From the NCBI GenBank assembly GCA_027621915.1, contig JAQCAD010000021.1:1-50563 (forward strand): a stretch of 50,563 bases of DNA. Reading direction: 5' to 3'. This stretch comes from Pseudomonadota bacterium. GTDB taxonomy: Bacteria; Pseudomonadota; Gammaproteobacteria; Steroidobacterales; Woeseiaceae. The notes below the pieces were generated by a model. It made no database searches. It had not been told where the DNA came from and was given only the letters and a program-made list of their open reading frames with translations. The translations under genes were made by a program, and so were the position numbers. Every line of letters starts with the position of its first letter. The first letter of the stretch is position 1. Below, one piece after another: positions 14,558 through 20,023 of this stretch.

Positions 14558-15511
14558 TTACCCGGTCCGAACGGCCTCCAGCGCGATGTCAGGAAAATCG
14601 GTGAATACACCGTCAATTTTGATTTCGTCGGCAAACCAGCGAATCATTTCCAGCAGTGACTTGAAGCCTGGAGCCAGTTGATCGGCCCGGAAAGTCCAGG
14701 GGTGAACCAGCAAGCCCAGTTCATGGGCCATCGATACCAATCCGGTAGACACGAGTCGCCCGTCAACGCTGGCAGGATTCACGATATGACCAATATTCGG
14801 CCCGATGGCATCAACTGATCTCGCAATGTCGACAAGACCGTCGCGTGTTTTGAGCCGTGGGTAATCCGTATCTGACTCCAATGAGTCATTGTCGTCGATC
14901 AGTTGAGCGAGTTTTAACTGGCAGCCAAGTTCGTGCCTGATGCGGCGCATTTCCGTGGCGTCGAAACATTCCACAAATATCGGGTCCTTCTTCGAGTGAT
15001 AGCCGAGGTCATCCAACAGCTGGAGGGTAAGCAGACTGATATCAACTCCATCTCCCTTGTGGAATGCCGGACTTTTGATCTCTGTATAGATACCCACGTC
15101 CCTGCCTGTCGATTTGTTCATTCCCTGGATGAACCTGATCTCCTCGCGAAGCGTTGATACGCGAAATTTGCCGACTGTTGTCGGAAATCGATTCGGGAAC
15201 ACAGCCGTTATCCCATCGCTTTGCCGTCGCTCGTGAACATTCAGGGATCTAATCTCGGCGAGATCAAAGTCACGAACGTAATAACGGCCGTTTTCCCGTT
15301 GCCGGCCCGTAAAACGCTCCGCGACATCTGTGACACGGTCCAGGTGAATGTCGTGCAGGACGATGAGCTCGTTGTCTCGTGTGGCAACTACGTCCTGCTC
15401 GATGTAGTCCGCGCCCAGCGCATGGGCATAGGCTTTCGCCTCCAGCGTATGTTCTGGCAAATAACCGCTGGCCCCGCGGTGTGCAATTACCAGAAAGTCA
15501 TTACCAGCCAT
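14558..15511 (-). CDS. glpQ: glycerophosphodiester phosphodiesterase (GlpQ-like, no signal peptide)
   Basis: 317 residues. The GDPD catalytic set is visible: H in IAHRGASGYLPEHTLEA (about residue 11), E-x-D in YIEQDVVATRDNEL and H in IVLHDIHLDRVTD. The insertion NGRYYVRDFDLAEIRSLNVH and the PFRADQ-like ending (HPWTFRADQ, DGVFTDFPDIALEA) match the GlpQ rather than the UgpQ branch. GDPDs hydrolyse deacylated phospholipids to glycerol 3-phosphate and an alcohol. Periplasmic GlpQ carries a signal peptide; this one starts right at the fold, so it is probably cytoplasmic. It lies 14 bases downstream of the TIR-like gene on the same strand and is probably co-transcribed with it. Confidence 0.9.
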   Translation of the reverse strand: MAGNDFLVIAHRGASGYLPEHTLEAKAYAHALGADYIEQDVVATRDNELIVLHDIHLDRVTDVAERFTGRQRENGRYYVRDFDLAEIRSLNVHERRQSDGITAVFPNRFPTTVGKFRVSTLREEIRFIQGMNKSTGRDVGIYTEIKSPAFHKGDGVDISLLTLQLLDDLGYHSKKDPIFVECFDATEMRRIRHELGCQLKLAQLIDDNDSLESDTDYPRLKTRDGLVDIARSVDAIGPNIGHIVNPASVDGRLVSTGLVSMAHELGLLVHPWTFRADQLAPGFKSLLEMIRWFADEIKIDGVFTDFPDIALEAVRTG

Positions 15512-15525
15512 TTCTTAAGCCTTTG

Positions 15526-15981
15526 TTATTCAAGAGTAAACTCGATAGTTTCCCATCGCGAAGTATCTTCAAGACGAGCATGCTTCTTCAGCGCGTCGAC
15601 CATTTCCCGCTCGTTCCATTCAATGTTCGCATCGGCCCGTTCCGTCAGGTCTTTCGGCGTTTCAGCGACGCCGCCAAAGGGCCGGATCGCAATCACCGGC
15701 TTGTCGTTCGCCTCTGCAACATCTATCTGGTATCGCGTCAGGTCTTTCTGTTCAAGGTAAAGTGATGCGAGCACAATGACGGCCTCACATTCCTTGATCT
15801 GCCTGATCAACTCATCCTTGATCGACTCCAGCCCGCCGGTCTCAGGCATGTTTTCCGGCTTACTGCAGTTCAGGTAAAAAAACCGATCCACGCTTTCGAG
15901 AAACTCGAACACGCGAAGATAATCATCGTGTTGCTGAAACGTGTGGGTAACAAATACCCGGATCGGATTCTTTTCAGACAC
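15526..15981 (-). CDS. TIR-like (MTH538/ThsB-type) domain protein
   Basis: 151 residues, GTG start at 15981 with GGAGA six bases upstream. The whole protein is one flavodoxin-like TIR-type fold: IRVFVTHTFQQHDDYLRVFE (first strand and helix), CEAVIVLASLYLEQKDLTRY (central strand), KPVIAIRPFGGVAETPKDL, then IEWNEREMVDALKKHARLED. This matches the PF08937 group that includes ThsB of the Thoeris system and many stand-alone proteins. Catalytic TIRs usually show an aromatic-x3-E in the third helix. Here the region reads LTRYQIDVAEAN, so NAD-cleaving activity is uncertain. It is co-oriented with the GDPD gene and divergent from the EEP gene, 53 bases away. Confidence 0.75.
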   Translation of the reverse strand: MSEKNPIRVFVTHTFQQHDDYLRVFEFLESVDRFFYLNCSKPENMPETGGLESIKDELIRQIKECEAVIVLASLYLEQKDLTRYQIDVAEANDKPVIAIRPFGGVAETPKDLTERADANIEWNEREMVDALKKHARLEDTSRWETIEFTLE

Positions 15982-16034
15982 TGGTTTCTCCGTCTGCCAT
16001 CTCGTTGGGTACTAGTGTATCTTAGCGTCCGATC

Positions 16035-16769
16035 ATGAGACTACTCCTGTACAACATTCGATACGGCGTTGGGGATGGCGCCTCGATGCATATGCCACTG
16101 CCAGGCGCCGGATATATTCTTGGGAATCAAAATGTTCTCCCCGATATTTCGAAATTCATCAAATCGACCGATCCGGATATCGTGGGTCTGATCGAGGTCG
16201 ATACCGGGTCGATTCGCAGCAGAAAAATCAATCAGGCGGAGATGATAGCGACTGAGTTGGGAATGAATTCGTCATACGAAATCAAGTACGGCGCAAGGTC
16301 GATCAATCAATTGCTACCGATCATTCGCAAACAGGGAAACGCTTTTCTGGCGGCACAGCGAATTCACGGGGAAACGTTTCATTATTTCGATACTGGCATA
16401 AAGCGACTGATAATCGAGCTGGAGATGGACGCGTTTTCTGTTTTCCTCGTGCACCTGTCACTCAAATACCGGCATCGCCACCTGCAACTTCGAAAGCTCT
16501 ACGACCTGATCGAAGTCACGAAAAAACCTGTAATCGTCGCCGGAGACTTCAATACGTTTTGGGGCGAAAACGAAATCTACCTTTTCATGCGTGCTGCGGG
16601 ACTCAGGAGCGCAAATACAAAAAGCCTGCCCTCTTATCCGAGCCGCTCTCCTCGCAAAGAACTTGATTTTGTCCTCTATCAGGATGGGATAACGGTGACG
16701 AATTTCGAAATTCCGCAAGTGAGATATTCCGATCATTTGCCATTGATCTGCGACTTCGAGGTCAGGTAG
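16035..16769 (+). CDS. endonuclease/exonuclease/phosphatase (EEP) family protein
   Basis: 244 residues. EEP-fold motifs in order: LLLYNIRYGVGDG (first strand with Asn), DIVGLIEVDTGS (metal-binding Glu at about residue 54), FLVHLSLKYRHRHLQ (catalytic His), VIVAGDFNTFWGENE (the GDFN motif) and VRYSDHLPLICDFEV (final SDH-type His). All are needed for Mg-dependent phosphodiester or phosphomonoester hydrolysis. There is no signal peptide, so it should act in the cytoplasm. The substrate could be nucleic acid, an inositol-type lipid or a nucleotide. It is divergent from the TIR-like/GDPD pair and 4 bases from the fadJ-like gene, so probably an operon with the latter. Confidence 0.85.
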   Translation: MRLLLYNIRYGVGDGASMHMPLPGAGYILGNQNVLPDISKFIKSTDPDIVGLIEVDTGSIRSRKINQAEMIATELGMNSSYEIKYGARSINQLLPIIRKQGNAFLAAQRIHGETFHYFDTGIKRLIIELEMDAFSVFLVHLSLKYRHRHLQLRKLYDLIEVTKKPVIVAGDFNTFWGENEIYLFMRAAGLRSANTKSLPSYPSRSPRKELDFVLYQDGITVTNFEIPQVRYSDHLPLICDFEVR

Positions 16770-16773
16770 GACT

Positions 16774-18813
16774 ATGGACAAACTCAAAAACTGGCGTAGA
16801 GAGACCGATGCCGACGGAATTATCTGGCTTTGTCTCGATAAAGCCGACAGCAACGTCAACGTATTGTCATCAACGGTGCTTTTGGAGTTTGACGACATCC
16901 TGGGTGACATTGAGTCCGACCCGCCTCCTGGTCTTGTTATCTACTCGGGCAAACCAAGCGGATTTGTCATGGGGGCGGATATCAAAGAGTTTACGGAAAT
17001 CCGATCTGCGGACCAGGGATTCGAACTGATCAGGCTGGGGCAGAAACTGTTCGATCGGCTGGAAGCGCTGCGATGTCCAACGGTTGCCGCGTTGAATGGC
17101 TTGTGCCTGGGCGGTGGTTTCGAGCTGGCATTAGCCTGCACCTATCGGGTCGCCCTGGAAAACAAGAAGGCCGTCATTGGCTTTCCGGAAGTTCAGCTTG
17201 GACTTCATCCAGGTTTTGGCGGCACGGTGCGATCCGTAAGAATGGGTGGCGTTCGCAACGCGATGCCACTGATGTTAACGGGCAAACCGATAACGGTCGA
17301 CAAAGCGCGTCATCAGGGCTTCATCGACCGCGTTGCGACACCTGCAAACTGGAAGCAGGCTGCGAAGAAACTGATCGGGTCCGGGAAGCCAAAGTCGTCG
17401 GCGCCGCTTCTCGACAAATTGCTGAGTTTTTCATTGTTGCGCCCGATTGTCGTGCGCACATTGAAATCGCAGGTTGCCGGCAAAGCGCGCCAGGAGCACT
17501 ACCCGTCTCCCTACGCGATGATCGATCTCTGGGCGCGTCACGGCGCGTCGGGAGACGCCGCGTACGAAGCGGAAGCGCGATCATTCGCGGAACTAATGGT
17601 TGGCAGTACATCTCGCAACCTCGTTCGTGTGTTTTTTTTGCAAAACAGGCTCAAGTCGCAGGGCAGCAAACCGGCGACAGCCATCGAACGGGTACATGTT
17701 GTTGGTGCCGGCGTTATGGGTGGCGATATCGCGGCCTGGTGCGCATTGAGTGGCCTGCACGTTACGTTGCAGGACCGCGCCTTGGAATACGTCGAACCAG
17801 CACTGCTACGGGCAGCCAGGCTTTTCAGCAAACGCATACACGATTCAAATGACCGAGCGCGGGCTACTGACCGGTTGGTGCCAGACATCGAAGGCGACGG
17901 TGTTGCGAATGCAGATTTGATCATCGAAGCGATATTCGAAGACCGCGAGGCCAAGCAAGCGCTTTACCGAACACTACAAGTGGCGATGAAACCAGGAGCC
18001 ATCCTTGCTACGAATACATCGAGCATCCGCCTCGAGGAACTGCGAACGGTACTCGACCATCCGGACCGTTTTATAGGGCTGCATTTCTTTAATCCTGTTG
18101 CGCAGCTGCCGCTTGTCGAAGTCATTCGATGTGACGACACTCAACAGGATGTTTTGAACGCCGGATTTTCGTTTGTCAAGACCATTGGCAAATTCCCTCT
18201 TGAGTGTGCAAGCTCGCCGGGTTTCGTCGTCAACCGGGTGCTGGCACCTTACATGGCTGAAGCGATGCGTTTGGCCGAGTCCGGTGTTCCACTTTCGGCA
18301 ATTGATCGTGCCGCCGAGGCTTTTGGCATGCCGATGGGCCCGATTGAGCTGATCGATAGCGTCGGAATCGATGTGGCGATGCATGTTTCGCGAGTACTGG
18401 GTGCGGCATTCGATCGCGAAGTGCCGACCACACTCTCCGAGATGGTCGAGAAAGGCCTGCTTGGCCGAAAATCCGGCCAGGGCTTTTATGCGTGGCAGAA
18501 CGGCAAGGCCGTCAAAACCAATGCCGACGAAGCTGGCGTTCCCGAGAATCTGGGCGACATGCTTATTTTGCCAATGGTGAACGAGGCAGTTGCCTGCCTG
18601 GTCGAGGGTGTAGTCAAGGATGCCGAGCTCCTCGATGCCGGCGTAATTTTCGGTACCGGGTTTGCCCCATTTCGAGGTGGACCGTTGCAGTACGCCCGTG
18701 ATCGGGGAGTGGACGATGTCGTTCAGACGCTTCAGAATTTGTCCATCGAGTCAGGCGCCCACTTTCAACCGCATAAGGGTTGGGAAGTGTTTCGCGGGAA
18801 CAACGAAGAATGA
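16774..18813 (+). CDS. fadJ: FadJ-like bifunctional enoyl-CoA hydratase / 3-hydroxyacyl-CoA dehydrogenase
   Basis: 679 residues. The N-terminal crotonase part (about 1-200) has the oxyanion region LNGLCLGGGFELALACTYR near residue 106 and the second catalytic Glu in IGFPEVQLGLHPGFGG. The NAD-binding Rossmann part begins at about residue 306 (VHVVGAGVMGGDIAAWCALS), followed by ATNTSSIRLEELR and the HFFNPVAQLPLVEVI dehydrogenase motif near 436. A C-terminal 3HCDH domain ends in GLLGRKSGQGFYAWQ. It carries out hydration and oxidation in fatty-acid beta-oxidation. No thiolase (fadI/fadA) follows, so the partner is elsewhere. It is tightly spaced behind the EEP gene. The symbol separates FadJ from FadB by similarity only. 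Confidence 0.87.
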   Translation: MDKLKNWRRETDADGIIWLCLDKADSNVNVLSSTVLLEFDDILGDIESDPPPGLVIYSGKPSGFVMGADIKEFTEIRSADQGFELIRLGQKLFDRLEALRCPTVAALNGLCLGGGFELALACTYRVALENKKAVIGFPEVQLGLHPGFGGTVRSVRMGGVRNAMPLMLTGKPITVDKARHQGFIDRVATPANWKQAAKKLIGSGKPKSSAPLLDKLLSFSLLRPIVVRTLKSQVAGKARQEHYPSPYAMIDLWARHGASGDAAYEAEARSFAELMVGSTSRNLVRVFFLQNRLKSQGSKPATAIERVHVVGAGVMGGDIAAWCALSGLHVTLQDRALEYVEPALLRAARLFSKRIHDSNDRARATDRLVPDIEGDGVANADLIIEAIFEDREAKQALYRTLQVAMKPGAILATNTSSIRLEELRTVLDHPDRFIGLHFFNPVAQLPLVEVIRCDDTQQDVLNAGFSFVKTIGKFPLECASSPGFVVNRVLAPYMAEAMRLAESGVPLSAIDRAAEAFGMPMGPIELIDSVGIDVAMHVSRVLGAAFDREVPTTLSEMVEKGLLGRKSGQGFYAWQNGKAVKTNADEAGVPENLGDMLILPMVNEAVACLVEGVVKDAELLDAGVIFGTGFAPFRGGPLQYARDRGVDDVVQTLQNLSIESGAHFQPHKGWEVFRGNNEE

Positions 18814-18979: not shown

Positions 18980-20023
18980 ATGACGGGTGAGCAGCTAAGC
19001 ATCGATCTGCTCAAGAAATTCTCTCCTCTGAATGGACTGAAGCGGGACAATCTGACTGCCCTTGCCAAAAAGGTGCAGATCCGCGAGCTATCGCCGCAAC
19101 AACTGTTGTTTAAAGAGGGCGACACCGAAAAACGGACCATTTACATTATTTCGGGCGCGCTGGAACTGCTTGATCAGGGAAAGCTCTCTGAAGTCATTGA
19201 GGGTGGCACCGACAGCGCCCGAAATCCCGTATCACCCTTGTTCCCACGACGAGTAACCGCCAGGGCGCACGACAGGGTGCAGTACATCTCTATAGACAGT
19301 GACTTGCTCGATGTCATGCTCACCTGGGACCAGACGGGCTCGTATGAAGTCTCCGAGCTTCAAGGCTCAGTTGATGACGGCGGCGGCGATGACTGGATGA
19401 CGATGCTTCTCCAGGCTAAAGCTTTTCATAAGATTCCTCCCGCCAATATCCAGGCGATTTTCATGCGGATGCAGCAGATCAACTATAAGCGCGGGGATGT
19501 TGTCCTGAAGCAAGGATCGGAGGGCGATTATTTTTACGTGCTGACCCGTGGCAAGAGTCTCGTCACTCGGGAAACCCCATTGAATAAGGAAGGGATCAAA
19601 CTCGCCGAACTGTCCGTTGGTGACACATTCGGTGAGGAAGCCTTGATCTCGGACGCCAAGCGCAATGCCACCGTTACCATGACGTCGGATGGGGCGGTAA
19701 TGCGTCTGGGCAAAGAAGATTTCAAGCGTTTGCTGAATGAACCCATGCTGGATTGGGTCACGCCGAGCGAAGCGGACGCCATCGTACAAAATGGCGGTCA
19801 ATGGCTCGATGTTCGACTTCCAAGCGAATTCGAAAATCACCATAAAGATGGCGCAATAAATATTCCGCTCTACTTTATTCGACTGAAGATCAATACGCTC
19901 GACAGGAGCAAGAAATATGTCGTCTGCTGCGATACGGGTCGGCGAAGTTCGGCGGGCGCGTATATCCTGAGTGAGCGCGGCTATCCCGCATACGTGCTGA
20001 AGGGTGGAATCAATACGATGTAG
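18980..20023 (+). CDS. double cyclic-nucleotide-binding plus rhodanese domain protein
   Basis: 347 residues. The first cNMP-binding-like domain (about 8-115) has ELSPQQLLFKEGDTEKRTIY and IISGALELLDQGK but a poor phosphate-binding cassette. The second (about 135-245) is better: YKRGDVVLKQGSEGDYFYVL, then AELSVGDTFGEEALISDAKR, NATVTM, with FGEEAL and RNAT in the cassette positions. The rhodanese domain (about 260-345) ends in VVCCDTGRRSSAGAYILS, an active-site loop C-D-T-G-R-R with Cys317. There is no helix-turn-helix, so it is not a transcription factor. Cyclic nucleotide control of a sulfurtransferase or redox function is suggested. It converges on the minus-strand operon with a six-base gap to pilZ. 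Confidence 0.85.
   Translation: MTGEQLSIDLLKKFSPLNGLKRDNLTALAKKVQIRELSPQQLLFKEGDTEKRTIYIISGALELLDQGKLSEVIEGGTDSARNPVSPLFPRRVTARAHDRVQYISIDSDLLDVMLTWDQTGSYEVSELQGSVDDGGGDDWMTMLLQAKAFHKIPPANIQAIFMRMQQINYKRGDVVLKQGSEGDYFYVLTRGKSLVTRETPLNKEGIKLAELSVGDTFGEEALISDAKRNATVTMTSDGAVMRLGKEDFKRLLNEPMLDWVTPSEADAIVQNGGQWLDVRLPSEFENHHKDGAINIPLYFIRLKINTLDRSKKYVVCCDTGRRSSAGAYILSERGYPAYVLKGGINTM

What the first reader, a model, noticed from the sequence alone, without database searches (positions are those of the whole stretch)
14558..16769. GDPD, TIR-like and EEP phosphohydrolase genes side by side
A GlpQ-like phosphodiesterase without a signal peptide follows a stand-alone MTH538/ThsB-type TIR-like protein by 14 bases, and an EEP-family hydrolase starts 53 bases away on the other strand. 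TIR-like proteins of this group are known as NAD-consuming signal makers in Thoeris, and the two flanking enzymes both cut phosphodiesters. The trio could handle a nucleotide- or lipid-derived signal. The expected catalytic aromatic-x3-E is not obvious in the TIR-like protein, so it may be a binding module instead. The unit is not a known defence system as far as I can see.
Basis: partly seen in the sequence, partly recalled or inferred. Interest (0 to 1): 0.55.

Follow-up and report, generated by a model that had tools for sequence, protein, structure and literature searches.

The report
Core TIR-like pseudoenzyme between phosphodiester-cutting genes
A protein shaped like bacterial immune TIR enzymes, but without their catalytic residue, is kept as a core gene in a family of marine bacteria, fixed between two phosphodiester-cutting enzymes and a fatty-acid oxidation gene, so it looks like a housekeeping helper and not a defence system.

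Summary
The three genes are real and correctly placed. The window belongs to a Woeseiaceae-like gammaproteobacterium. The order GDPD < TIR-like | EEP > FadJ is a fixed chromosomal neighbourhood. In the 80 best named relative loci, TIR-like and EEP are head-to-head in 79, GDPD closely follows TIR in 77, and FadJ directly follows EEP in 75; most exceptions sit at contig ends. ThsB-type TIRs in general are patchy in the class (26 of 232 genomes, three of this order).

The TIR-like protein has the MTH538/ThsB fold, but the NADase glutamate position is Gln85 here. It is not Glu in 90 of 92 orthologues examined, mostly Met or Gln. ThsB E85Q is described as lacking TIR catalytic activity (PMC10022894, passages). 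A lineage-specific invariant set (R23, E66, R125, R136, C-terminal tail) suggests a binding role. GDPD is a GlpQ-type enzyme without signal peptide. EEP keeps its catalytic set. Where EEP has no TIR beside it, a cardiolipin-synthase-like gene faces it in 6 of 13 loci.

Best reading: a domesticated, non-catalytic TIR-like binding protein in a phosphodiester/lipid-turnover locus, not Thoeris or defence. Substrate and ligand are unproven. TIR is missing or decayed in two relatives that keep the enzymes, so it is accessory.

The parts
14558..15511 (-). GDPD: GlpQ-type glycerophosphodiester phosphodiesterase without signal peptide, probably cytoplasmic
   Evidence: PF03009 E 2.2e-51; NF008354 370.4 bits, above its cut-off of 254; E. 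coli GlpQ 1t8q E 1.2e-80 with the HRG, EQD, LHD and EIK motifs aligned; the frame has no room for a signal peptide
15526..15981 (-). TIR-like protein (MTH538/ThsB_TIR fold), NADase Glu replaced by Gln85, lineage-specific conserved C-terminal tail
   Evidence: PF08937 27.1 bits; MTH538 1eiw E 2.7e-8 by profile; model pLDDT 88.7; VIA Z 13.7, rmsd 2.2, 111 aligned to 1eiw; column 85 counts; dN 0.13-0.19 with pS above 0.7
15982..16034 (.). 53-base divergent spacer between TIR-like and EEP; -10-like TATCTT at 16018-16023 on + strand
   Evidence: Sequence; 8-mer GTATCGTA, either strand, in 49 of 79 spacers of relatives (no control run); promoter scan found nothing above shuffles
16035..16769 (+). 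EEP-superfamily hydrolase with intact catalytic residues (N7, E54, H140, D171, N173, D211, D233, H234)
   Evidence: PF03372 E 2.2e-12; residues invariant in 32 sequences; model pLDDT 80.4; VIA Z 24.8 (rmsd 2.5, 224 aligned) to 4ruw, 23.2 (2.4, 213) to neutral sphingomyelinase 8j2f, 22.8 (3.1, 219) to Nocturnin 6bt2
16774..18813 (+). FadJ-like beta-oxidation multifunctional protein, 4 bases after EEP
   Evidence: 3HCDH_N, 3HCDH and ECH_1; FadJ directly follows EEP in 75 of 80 relative loci
18980..20023 (+). cNMP-binding plus rhodanese protein, next gene in the conserved block; relation to the trio unknown
   Evidence: PF00027 and PF00581; conserved order

Best explanation
This is a vertically inherited housekeeping-type locus of Woeseiaceae and near relatives for phosphodiester, probably phospholipid, turnover. 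EEP (active, cytoplasmic) is expressed with FadJ. On the other strand a TIR-like protein that has lost NADase/deoxyribosyltransferase chemistry is expressed with a cytoplasmic GlpQ-type phosphodiesterase. The TIR-like protein most likely acts as a non-catalytic ligand- or partner-binding accessory: conserved H13/Y21/W122, a lineage-specific charged set R23/E66/R125/R136, and a conserved flexible C-terminal tail that could dock on a partner. Shown: genes, synteny, selection, missing Glu, intact EEP and GDPD catalytic motifs. Inferred: co-expression, lipid substrate, binding role. Unknown: ligand and partner.
For: Synteny 79/80, 77/80 and 75/80. TIR orthologue in 43 of 60 relatives, against 26 of 232 class genomes with any ThsB_TIR (different samples). 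Purifying selection. Glu missing in 90 of 92 orthologues while H13, Y21, R23, E66, A89, W122, R125 and R136 are kept in 92 of 92; R23, E66, R125, R136 and the tail are absent from the two remote Glu-bearing relatives. Tail residues 143-148 are the only ones under pLDDT 50, yet T140, R142, W143 and F148 are invariant in 81 of 81 (window and 80 loci). EEP and GDPD catalytic motifs are intact. In 13 EEP loci without TIR beside EEP, a ClsB-like PLD gene stands head-to-head with EEP in 6 (4 of 9 families) and FadJ lies downstream in 8 (5 of 9 families) (PLD domain checked for three). E. coli clsB is adjacent to the EEP gene ybhP.
Against: No experiment. EEP is only 24% identical to YbhP, and its best sequence profile match in PDB is Nocturnin, an NADP(H) phosphatase (activity recalled, one listed entry is titled with NADPH substrate), so a nucleotide substrate is as possible as a lipid. 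Gene order may be conserved without shared function: the genes labelled HolB, PilZ and coil are conserved too. TIR is not next to EEP in 5 of 17 TIR-bearing wider-order genomes. Two orthologues, L053 and L040, have Glu at the position. The own genome has no close ClsB-type partner among the PLD loci compared.
Confidence: 0.42

Rival explanations
1. The TIR-like protein is an active Thoeris-type sensor/NADase and the trio is a defence or NAD-signal system.
For: PF08937 and weak PADLOC ThsB hits; fold match to ThsB 6lhy, Z 11.5, rmsd 2.6, 113 aligned; Glu present in 2 of 92 orthologues.
Against: Catalytic Glu absent in 90 of 92 orthologues, Gln in the window; ThsB E85Q lacks activity (PMC10022894, passages); core-gene distribution and fixed locus; no defence hit for the two neighbours. 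A STALD search of the genome found none, but its control did not ring either, so it says nothing.
Confidence: 0.04
2. EEP is a Nocturnin-like NADP(H) 2'-phosphatase and the TIR-like protein an NAD(P)-nucleotide-binding regulator; the locus tunes NAD/NADP supply for FadJ beta-oxidation.
For: Best PDB profile match of EEP is Nocturnin E 1.6e-7, highest identity (24%) among the listed VIA rows; TIR/NDT-fold relatives bind nucleotides (matches, function by their titles); FadJ is NAD-dependent (recalled).
Against: The best-scoring stretch covers only profile positions 148-242, and a Bacteroides EEP protein of unknown function, 3g6s, is close behind (E 1.5e-6); many EEPs score about equally in structure; ClsB adjacency in relatives points to lipids.
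Confidence: 0.15
3. The trio is only a conserved gene order; the TIR-like protein has a function unrelated to EEP and GDPD.
For: TIR not next to EEP in 5 of 17 TIR-bearing wider-order genomes, two of them without any EEP match; TIR not found in G005 and only a remnant in G001, with EEP and GDPD kept; neighbouring genes are conserved too.
Against: TIR-EEP head-to-head in 37 of 43 TIR-bearing relatives, in many families; TIR-GDPD spacing 11-135 bases in 77 of 80 loci, with stop/start overlap in 12 of 80.
Confidence: 0.32

Closest known systems
MTH538 (PDB 1eiw), TIR-like protein of unknown function
   Same: Closest solved relative by sequence and fold; it also lacks Glu at the aligned position (Ala, read from the alignments)
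   Different: Archaeal, 111 aa, too short for the C-terminal tail; its gene context was not studied here
Thoeris ThsB (PF08937)
   Same: Same Pfam domain and fold; shared H13, Y21 and W122 with two Glu-bearing PF08937 proteins
   Different: No catalytic Glu, core-gene distribution, no defence context, extra C-terminal tail
E. coli GlpQ
   Same: Full-length homology above the equivalog cut-off, catalytic motifs aligned
   Different: No signal peptide, so probably cytoplasmic
E. coli YbhP of the ybhP-clsB-ybhN gene group
   Same: EEP family, next to cardiolipin synthase B; relatives of the window EEP also face ClsB-like genes
   Different: 24% identity; the window EEP faces TIR and pairs with FadJ. 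No paper on YbhP's own activity stood out in the listings
Nocturnin / neutral sphingomyelinase / TDP2 (EEP superfamily)
   Same: Fold; Nocturnin also by profile
   Different: Substrate unknown; the structural matches are nearly tied, so they do not tell the class

Membership tests
Thoeris (ThsB) | ThsB_TIR domain | tested here: met
   27.1 bits against cut-off 21.2
Thoeris (ThsB) | Catalytic Glu of the TIR NADase | tested here: not met
   Gln85 in the window; Glu in 2 of 92 orthologues
Thoeris (ThsB) | ThsA effector nearby | tested here: inconclusive
   None among the seven neighbouring genes given to Pfam; other window genes were not scanned; STALD search negative but its control did not ring
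Thoeris (ThsB) | Phage protection | not testable with these tools
   needs an experiment
TIR NADase / 2'-deoxyribosyltransferase superfamily | Fold | tested here: met
   Z 13.7 (rmsd 2.2, 111 aligned) to MTH538; Z about 11-13 to deoxyribosyltransferases and DNPH1
TIR NADase / 2'-deoxyribosyltransferase superfamily | Nucleophile Glu | tested here: not met
   the equivalence with the deoxyribosyltransferase Glu is recalled
GlpQ glycerophosphodiester phosphodiesterase | Sequence above equivalog cut-off and catalytic motifs | tested here: met
   370.4 bits against 254; alignment
GlpQ glycerophosphodiester phosphodiesterase | Periplasmic signal peptide | tested here: not met
   window frame opens one codon before the ATG; 61 of 79 relatives have at most 21 codons there
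EEP superfamily | Metal-binding and catalytic N, E, H, D-N, D, S-D-H set | tested here: met
   invariant in 32 sequences; residue roles recalled from the family
YbhP (clsB-linked EEP) | Adjacent cardiolipin synthase | tested here: not met
   TIR and FadJ stand beside EEP in the window; 6 of 13 loci without TIR beside EEP have a ClsB-like gene
Nocturnin | NADP(H) 2'-phosphatase activity | not testable with these tools
   Only a partial profile match

The most novel reading that the evidence does not exclude
A TIR protein of the immune ThsB family was domesticated in Woeseiaceae and near relatives as a non-catalytic metabolic sensor or adaptor. It lost its NADase residue, gained a conserved charged site and a docking tail, and now controls an EEP hydrolase and a cytoplasmic GlpQ that work with fatty-acid oxidation in membrane-lipid turnover.
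Probability: 0.2. Interest if true: 0.7.

Novelty: new variant of a known kind. Interest (0 to 1): 0.42.

Why it matters
Bacterial TIR proteins are studied mostly as immune NADases (recalled). A widely conserved, fixed-locus TIR-like gene without the catalytic residue, in a family of marine sediment bacteria, would be a clear case of a TIR fold working in ordinary metabolism. It comes with two testable enzyme partners and with natural losses for comparison. It is also a caution for defence-gene annotation: a ThsB_TIR domain hit here does not mean defence.

Tried and rejected
Thoeris/NADase reading: rejected on the Glu position and the distribution. PADLOC gave only weak ThsB models for TIR and nothing for GDPD or EEP. 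The STALD search is uninformative because its controls did not ring.

Exact PsrA-, CRP- and FNR-type patterns were found in 0 of 79 TIR-EEP spacers. The promoter and terminator scan was no better than shuffles.

A close cardiolipin-synthase partner elsewhere in the own genome: among the four PLD loci compared (genes on C82 and C58) the best is about 30% identical to the L138 protein. The weak seventh place on C1 was not compared.

The 12 class loci with EEP at about 30% identity (L159-L170) showed no ClsB-, TIR- or GDPD-like hit at E 1e-5; one (L169) had a weak FadJ-like hit. They look like another EEP group.

The context of TIR where it is moved (L043, L046, L048, L155, L157) gave a class-III aminotransferase, PepQ, PrkA and others, without a shared lipid theme. 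The TIR tree is weakly resolved, with long branches, so I draw no conclusion on when the Glu was lost.

Papers: PMC10022894 and PMC9241728 passages only; all others as search listings. No paper holds both 'Woeseiaceae' and 'TIR domain' in the library searched.

Full report
Observation. Domain assignments hold. FadJ begins 4 bases after EEP, and a cNMP-binding/rhodanese gene follows. The genome is an assembly of 3.56 Mb in 101 contigs. Its named relatives are titled Woeseiaceae, Woeseia, Gammaproteobacteria or Proteobacteria, a few Chromatiales or Rhodospirillaceae/Rhodospirillales. The labels HolB, PilZ, TonB and coil used for flanking genes are my reading of the translations (recalled); they come from no search.

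Conservation. The TIR-like gene has an orthologue in 43 of 60 relatives. EEP matches in 47 of 60 and GDPD in 48 of 60, some of the latter weak paralogues. From the coordinates of those calls: in the family, 26 genomes have TIR; in 25 it is head-to-head with EEP and in 25 GDPD directly follows. The exceptions are at contig ends (G016 for EEP, G003 for GDPD). In the wider order, 17 genomes have TIR. In 12 it is head-to-head with EEP; in 3 it lies elsewhere (G043, G051, G056) and in 2 no EEP was found (G040, G054). GDPD is near TIR in 3 of the 17 (G038 directly; G037 and G052 with about 1.1 kb between). In the 80 best named loci (251 stretches encoded a relative, 80 kept) TIR-EEP is head-to-head in 79, GDPD lies within 135 bases of TIR in 77, and FadJ directly follows EEP in 75. 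Exceptions: contig ends (L058, L059, L078, L084, L123), L063 (EEP in two pieces), and L128/L129 (one inserted flavoprotein gene). These sets overlap: several G genomes and named loci are the same assemblies.

Outside the order the full-length family is rare. 7 of 370 class genomes match: 5 are of the order, 2 are remote 139-aa proteins with Glu; how many of the 370 belong to the order is not shown. 7 of 299 phylum genomes match; apart from the own genome, no match goes past model position 144 of 149. Any ThsB_TIR protein is found in 26 of 232 class genomes, three of which (G000, G021, G058) are of this order. Six small genomes of one genus lack both TIR and EEP; four of them have a GDPD match.

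TIR-like protein. Profile search finds MTH538 at E 2.7e-8 and a Bacillus TIR (8fz9) at 0.71, not significant on its own. In that second alignment the family's Gln column meets the Glu of W-V-P-H-E. The model (pLDDT 88.7) matches MTH538 with Z 13.7 (rmsd 2.2, 111 aligned); deoxyribosyltransferases, DNPH1 and ThsB score about Z 11-13. Column 85: in the window plus 80 loci Met 41, Gln 27, Ile 8, Leu 4, Glu 1; in 11 wider-order proteins Gln 7, Thr 2, Met 1, Glu 1; the two remote proteins have Glu. ThsB E85Q is described as lacking TIR catalytic activity in PMC10022894 (passages read). Invariant in 92 of 92 are H13, Y21, R23, E66, A89, W122, R125 and R136. The two remote Glu-bearing proteins share H13, Y21, A89 and W122 but not R23, E66, R125 or R136, and lack the tail. 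The tail (T140, R142, W143, F148 invariant in 81 of 81; less so in the 11 wider-order proteins) includes 143-148, the only residues under pLDDT 50. This is what a docking tail would look like; that is inference. Against six relatives dN is 0.13-0.19 for TIR, 0.06-0.15 for EEP, 0.23-0.40 for GDPD and 0.20-0.27 for FadJ, with dS mostly saturated.

GDPD. GlpQ-type above its equivalog cut-off, catalytic motifs aligned with E. coli GlpQ, no signal peptide in the window. Among relatives 61 of 79 have no room for one; in 18 the frame is open back into the preceding gene, so a longer product is not formally excluded.

EEP. N7, E54, H140, D171, N173, D211, S232, D233 and H234 are invariant in 32 sequences down to 49% identity. 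The model matches many EEP enzymes about equally: Z 24.8 (rmsd 2.5, 224 aligned) to a Beutenbergia protein, 23.2 (2.4, 213) to neutral sphingomyelinase, 22.8 (3.1, 219) to Nocturnin. Profile search puts Nocturnin first, E 1.6e-7, then 3g6s, E 1.5e-6; single-sequence search found nothing significant. Residues 11-30 have pLDDT under 50 and carry a conserved proline/glycine-rich hydrophobic stretch; a membrane-contact loop is possible but speculative. Of 13 examined EEP loci without TIR beside them, 6 have a ClsB-like PLD gene head-to-head with EEP (L047, L138, L139, L140, L142, L156), and 8 have FadJ downstream on the same strand, at 0.06 to 2.8 kb (PLD domain confirmed for three). Several of the 13 are of the same family: counted by family, 4 of 9 have the PLD gene and 5 of 9 have FadJ. 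One more such locus, L044, was not given; it has FadJ downstream. E. coli ybhP is directly upstream of clsB but only 24% identical to EEP.

Results against a tight functional unit. In G005 (L154) no TIR is found between GDPD and EEP. In G001 (L153) only a remnant of the TIR C-terminus is left, while GDPD, EEP and FadJ persist. Both are draft assemblies. In the two f5 genomes TIR exists without a detected EEP. So the TIR-like protein is accessory to the enzymes, or partly independent of them.

Verdict. Not Thoeris and probably not an NADase. It is a core, fixed-locus TIR-like protein without the catalytic residue, in a phosphodiester and probably lipid-turnover neighbourhood. Steps shown: anatomy, conservation, missing Glu, intact partner motifs. 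Steps inferred: co-expression, partner docking, lipid theme. The NADP(H) alternative for EEP stays open.

Noticed in passing
L070, L087, L089, L092, L097, L106, L107, L111, L112, L113, L116, L117 (TIR-GDPD junction, about 8480 in most): In 12 of 80 relatives the TIR stop overlaps the GDPD start as GATTAG, and the homologous start codon (ATG in others such as L060, MRPVVIAHRG) reads ATT (IRPV[VI]IAHRG): possible conserved AUU start with termination-reinitiation coupling.
   Followed up: partly
window 16017-16024: An 8-mer GTATCGTA (GTATCTTA in the window), resembling a -10 box, occurs on either strand in 49 of 79 TIR-EEP spacers of relatives; in the window it lies about 11 nt before the EEP ATG and could give a nearly leaderless mRNA. 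No control was run.
   Followed up: partly
L128 8591-9622, L129 8519-9550, L038 8948-9979: A pyridine-nucleotide-disulphide oxidoreductase-like gene lies between TIR and GDPD in three sister loci (Pfam for the L128 protein only).
   Followed up: partly
G000:C100:15196-15477 (L194): A second ThsB_TIR domain in the own genome, in a 510-aa open frame, scores above the window protein (34.5 against 27.3 bits).
   Followed up: no
L048, L157, L043: Where TIR is away from EEP in f5 and f16 genomes, it stands head-to-head with a gene of one cluster in three genomes; the L048 member is a class-III aminotransferase.
   Followed up: partly
L138 9004-9726, L140 8958-9719, L142 10331-11029: A protein of about 230-250 aa follows EEP in three ClsB-paired loci; no Pfam hit for the two tested, L138 and L140.
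   Followed up: partly
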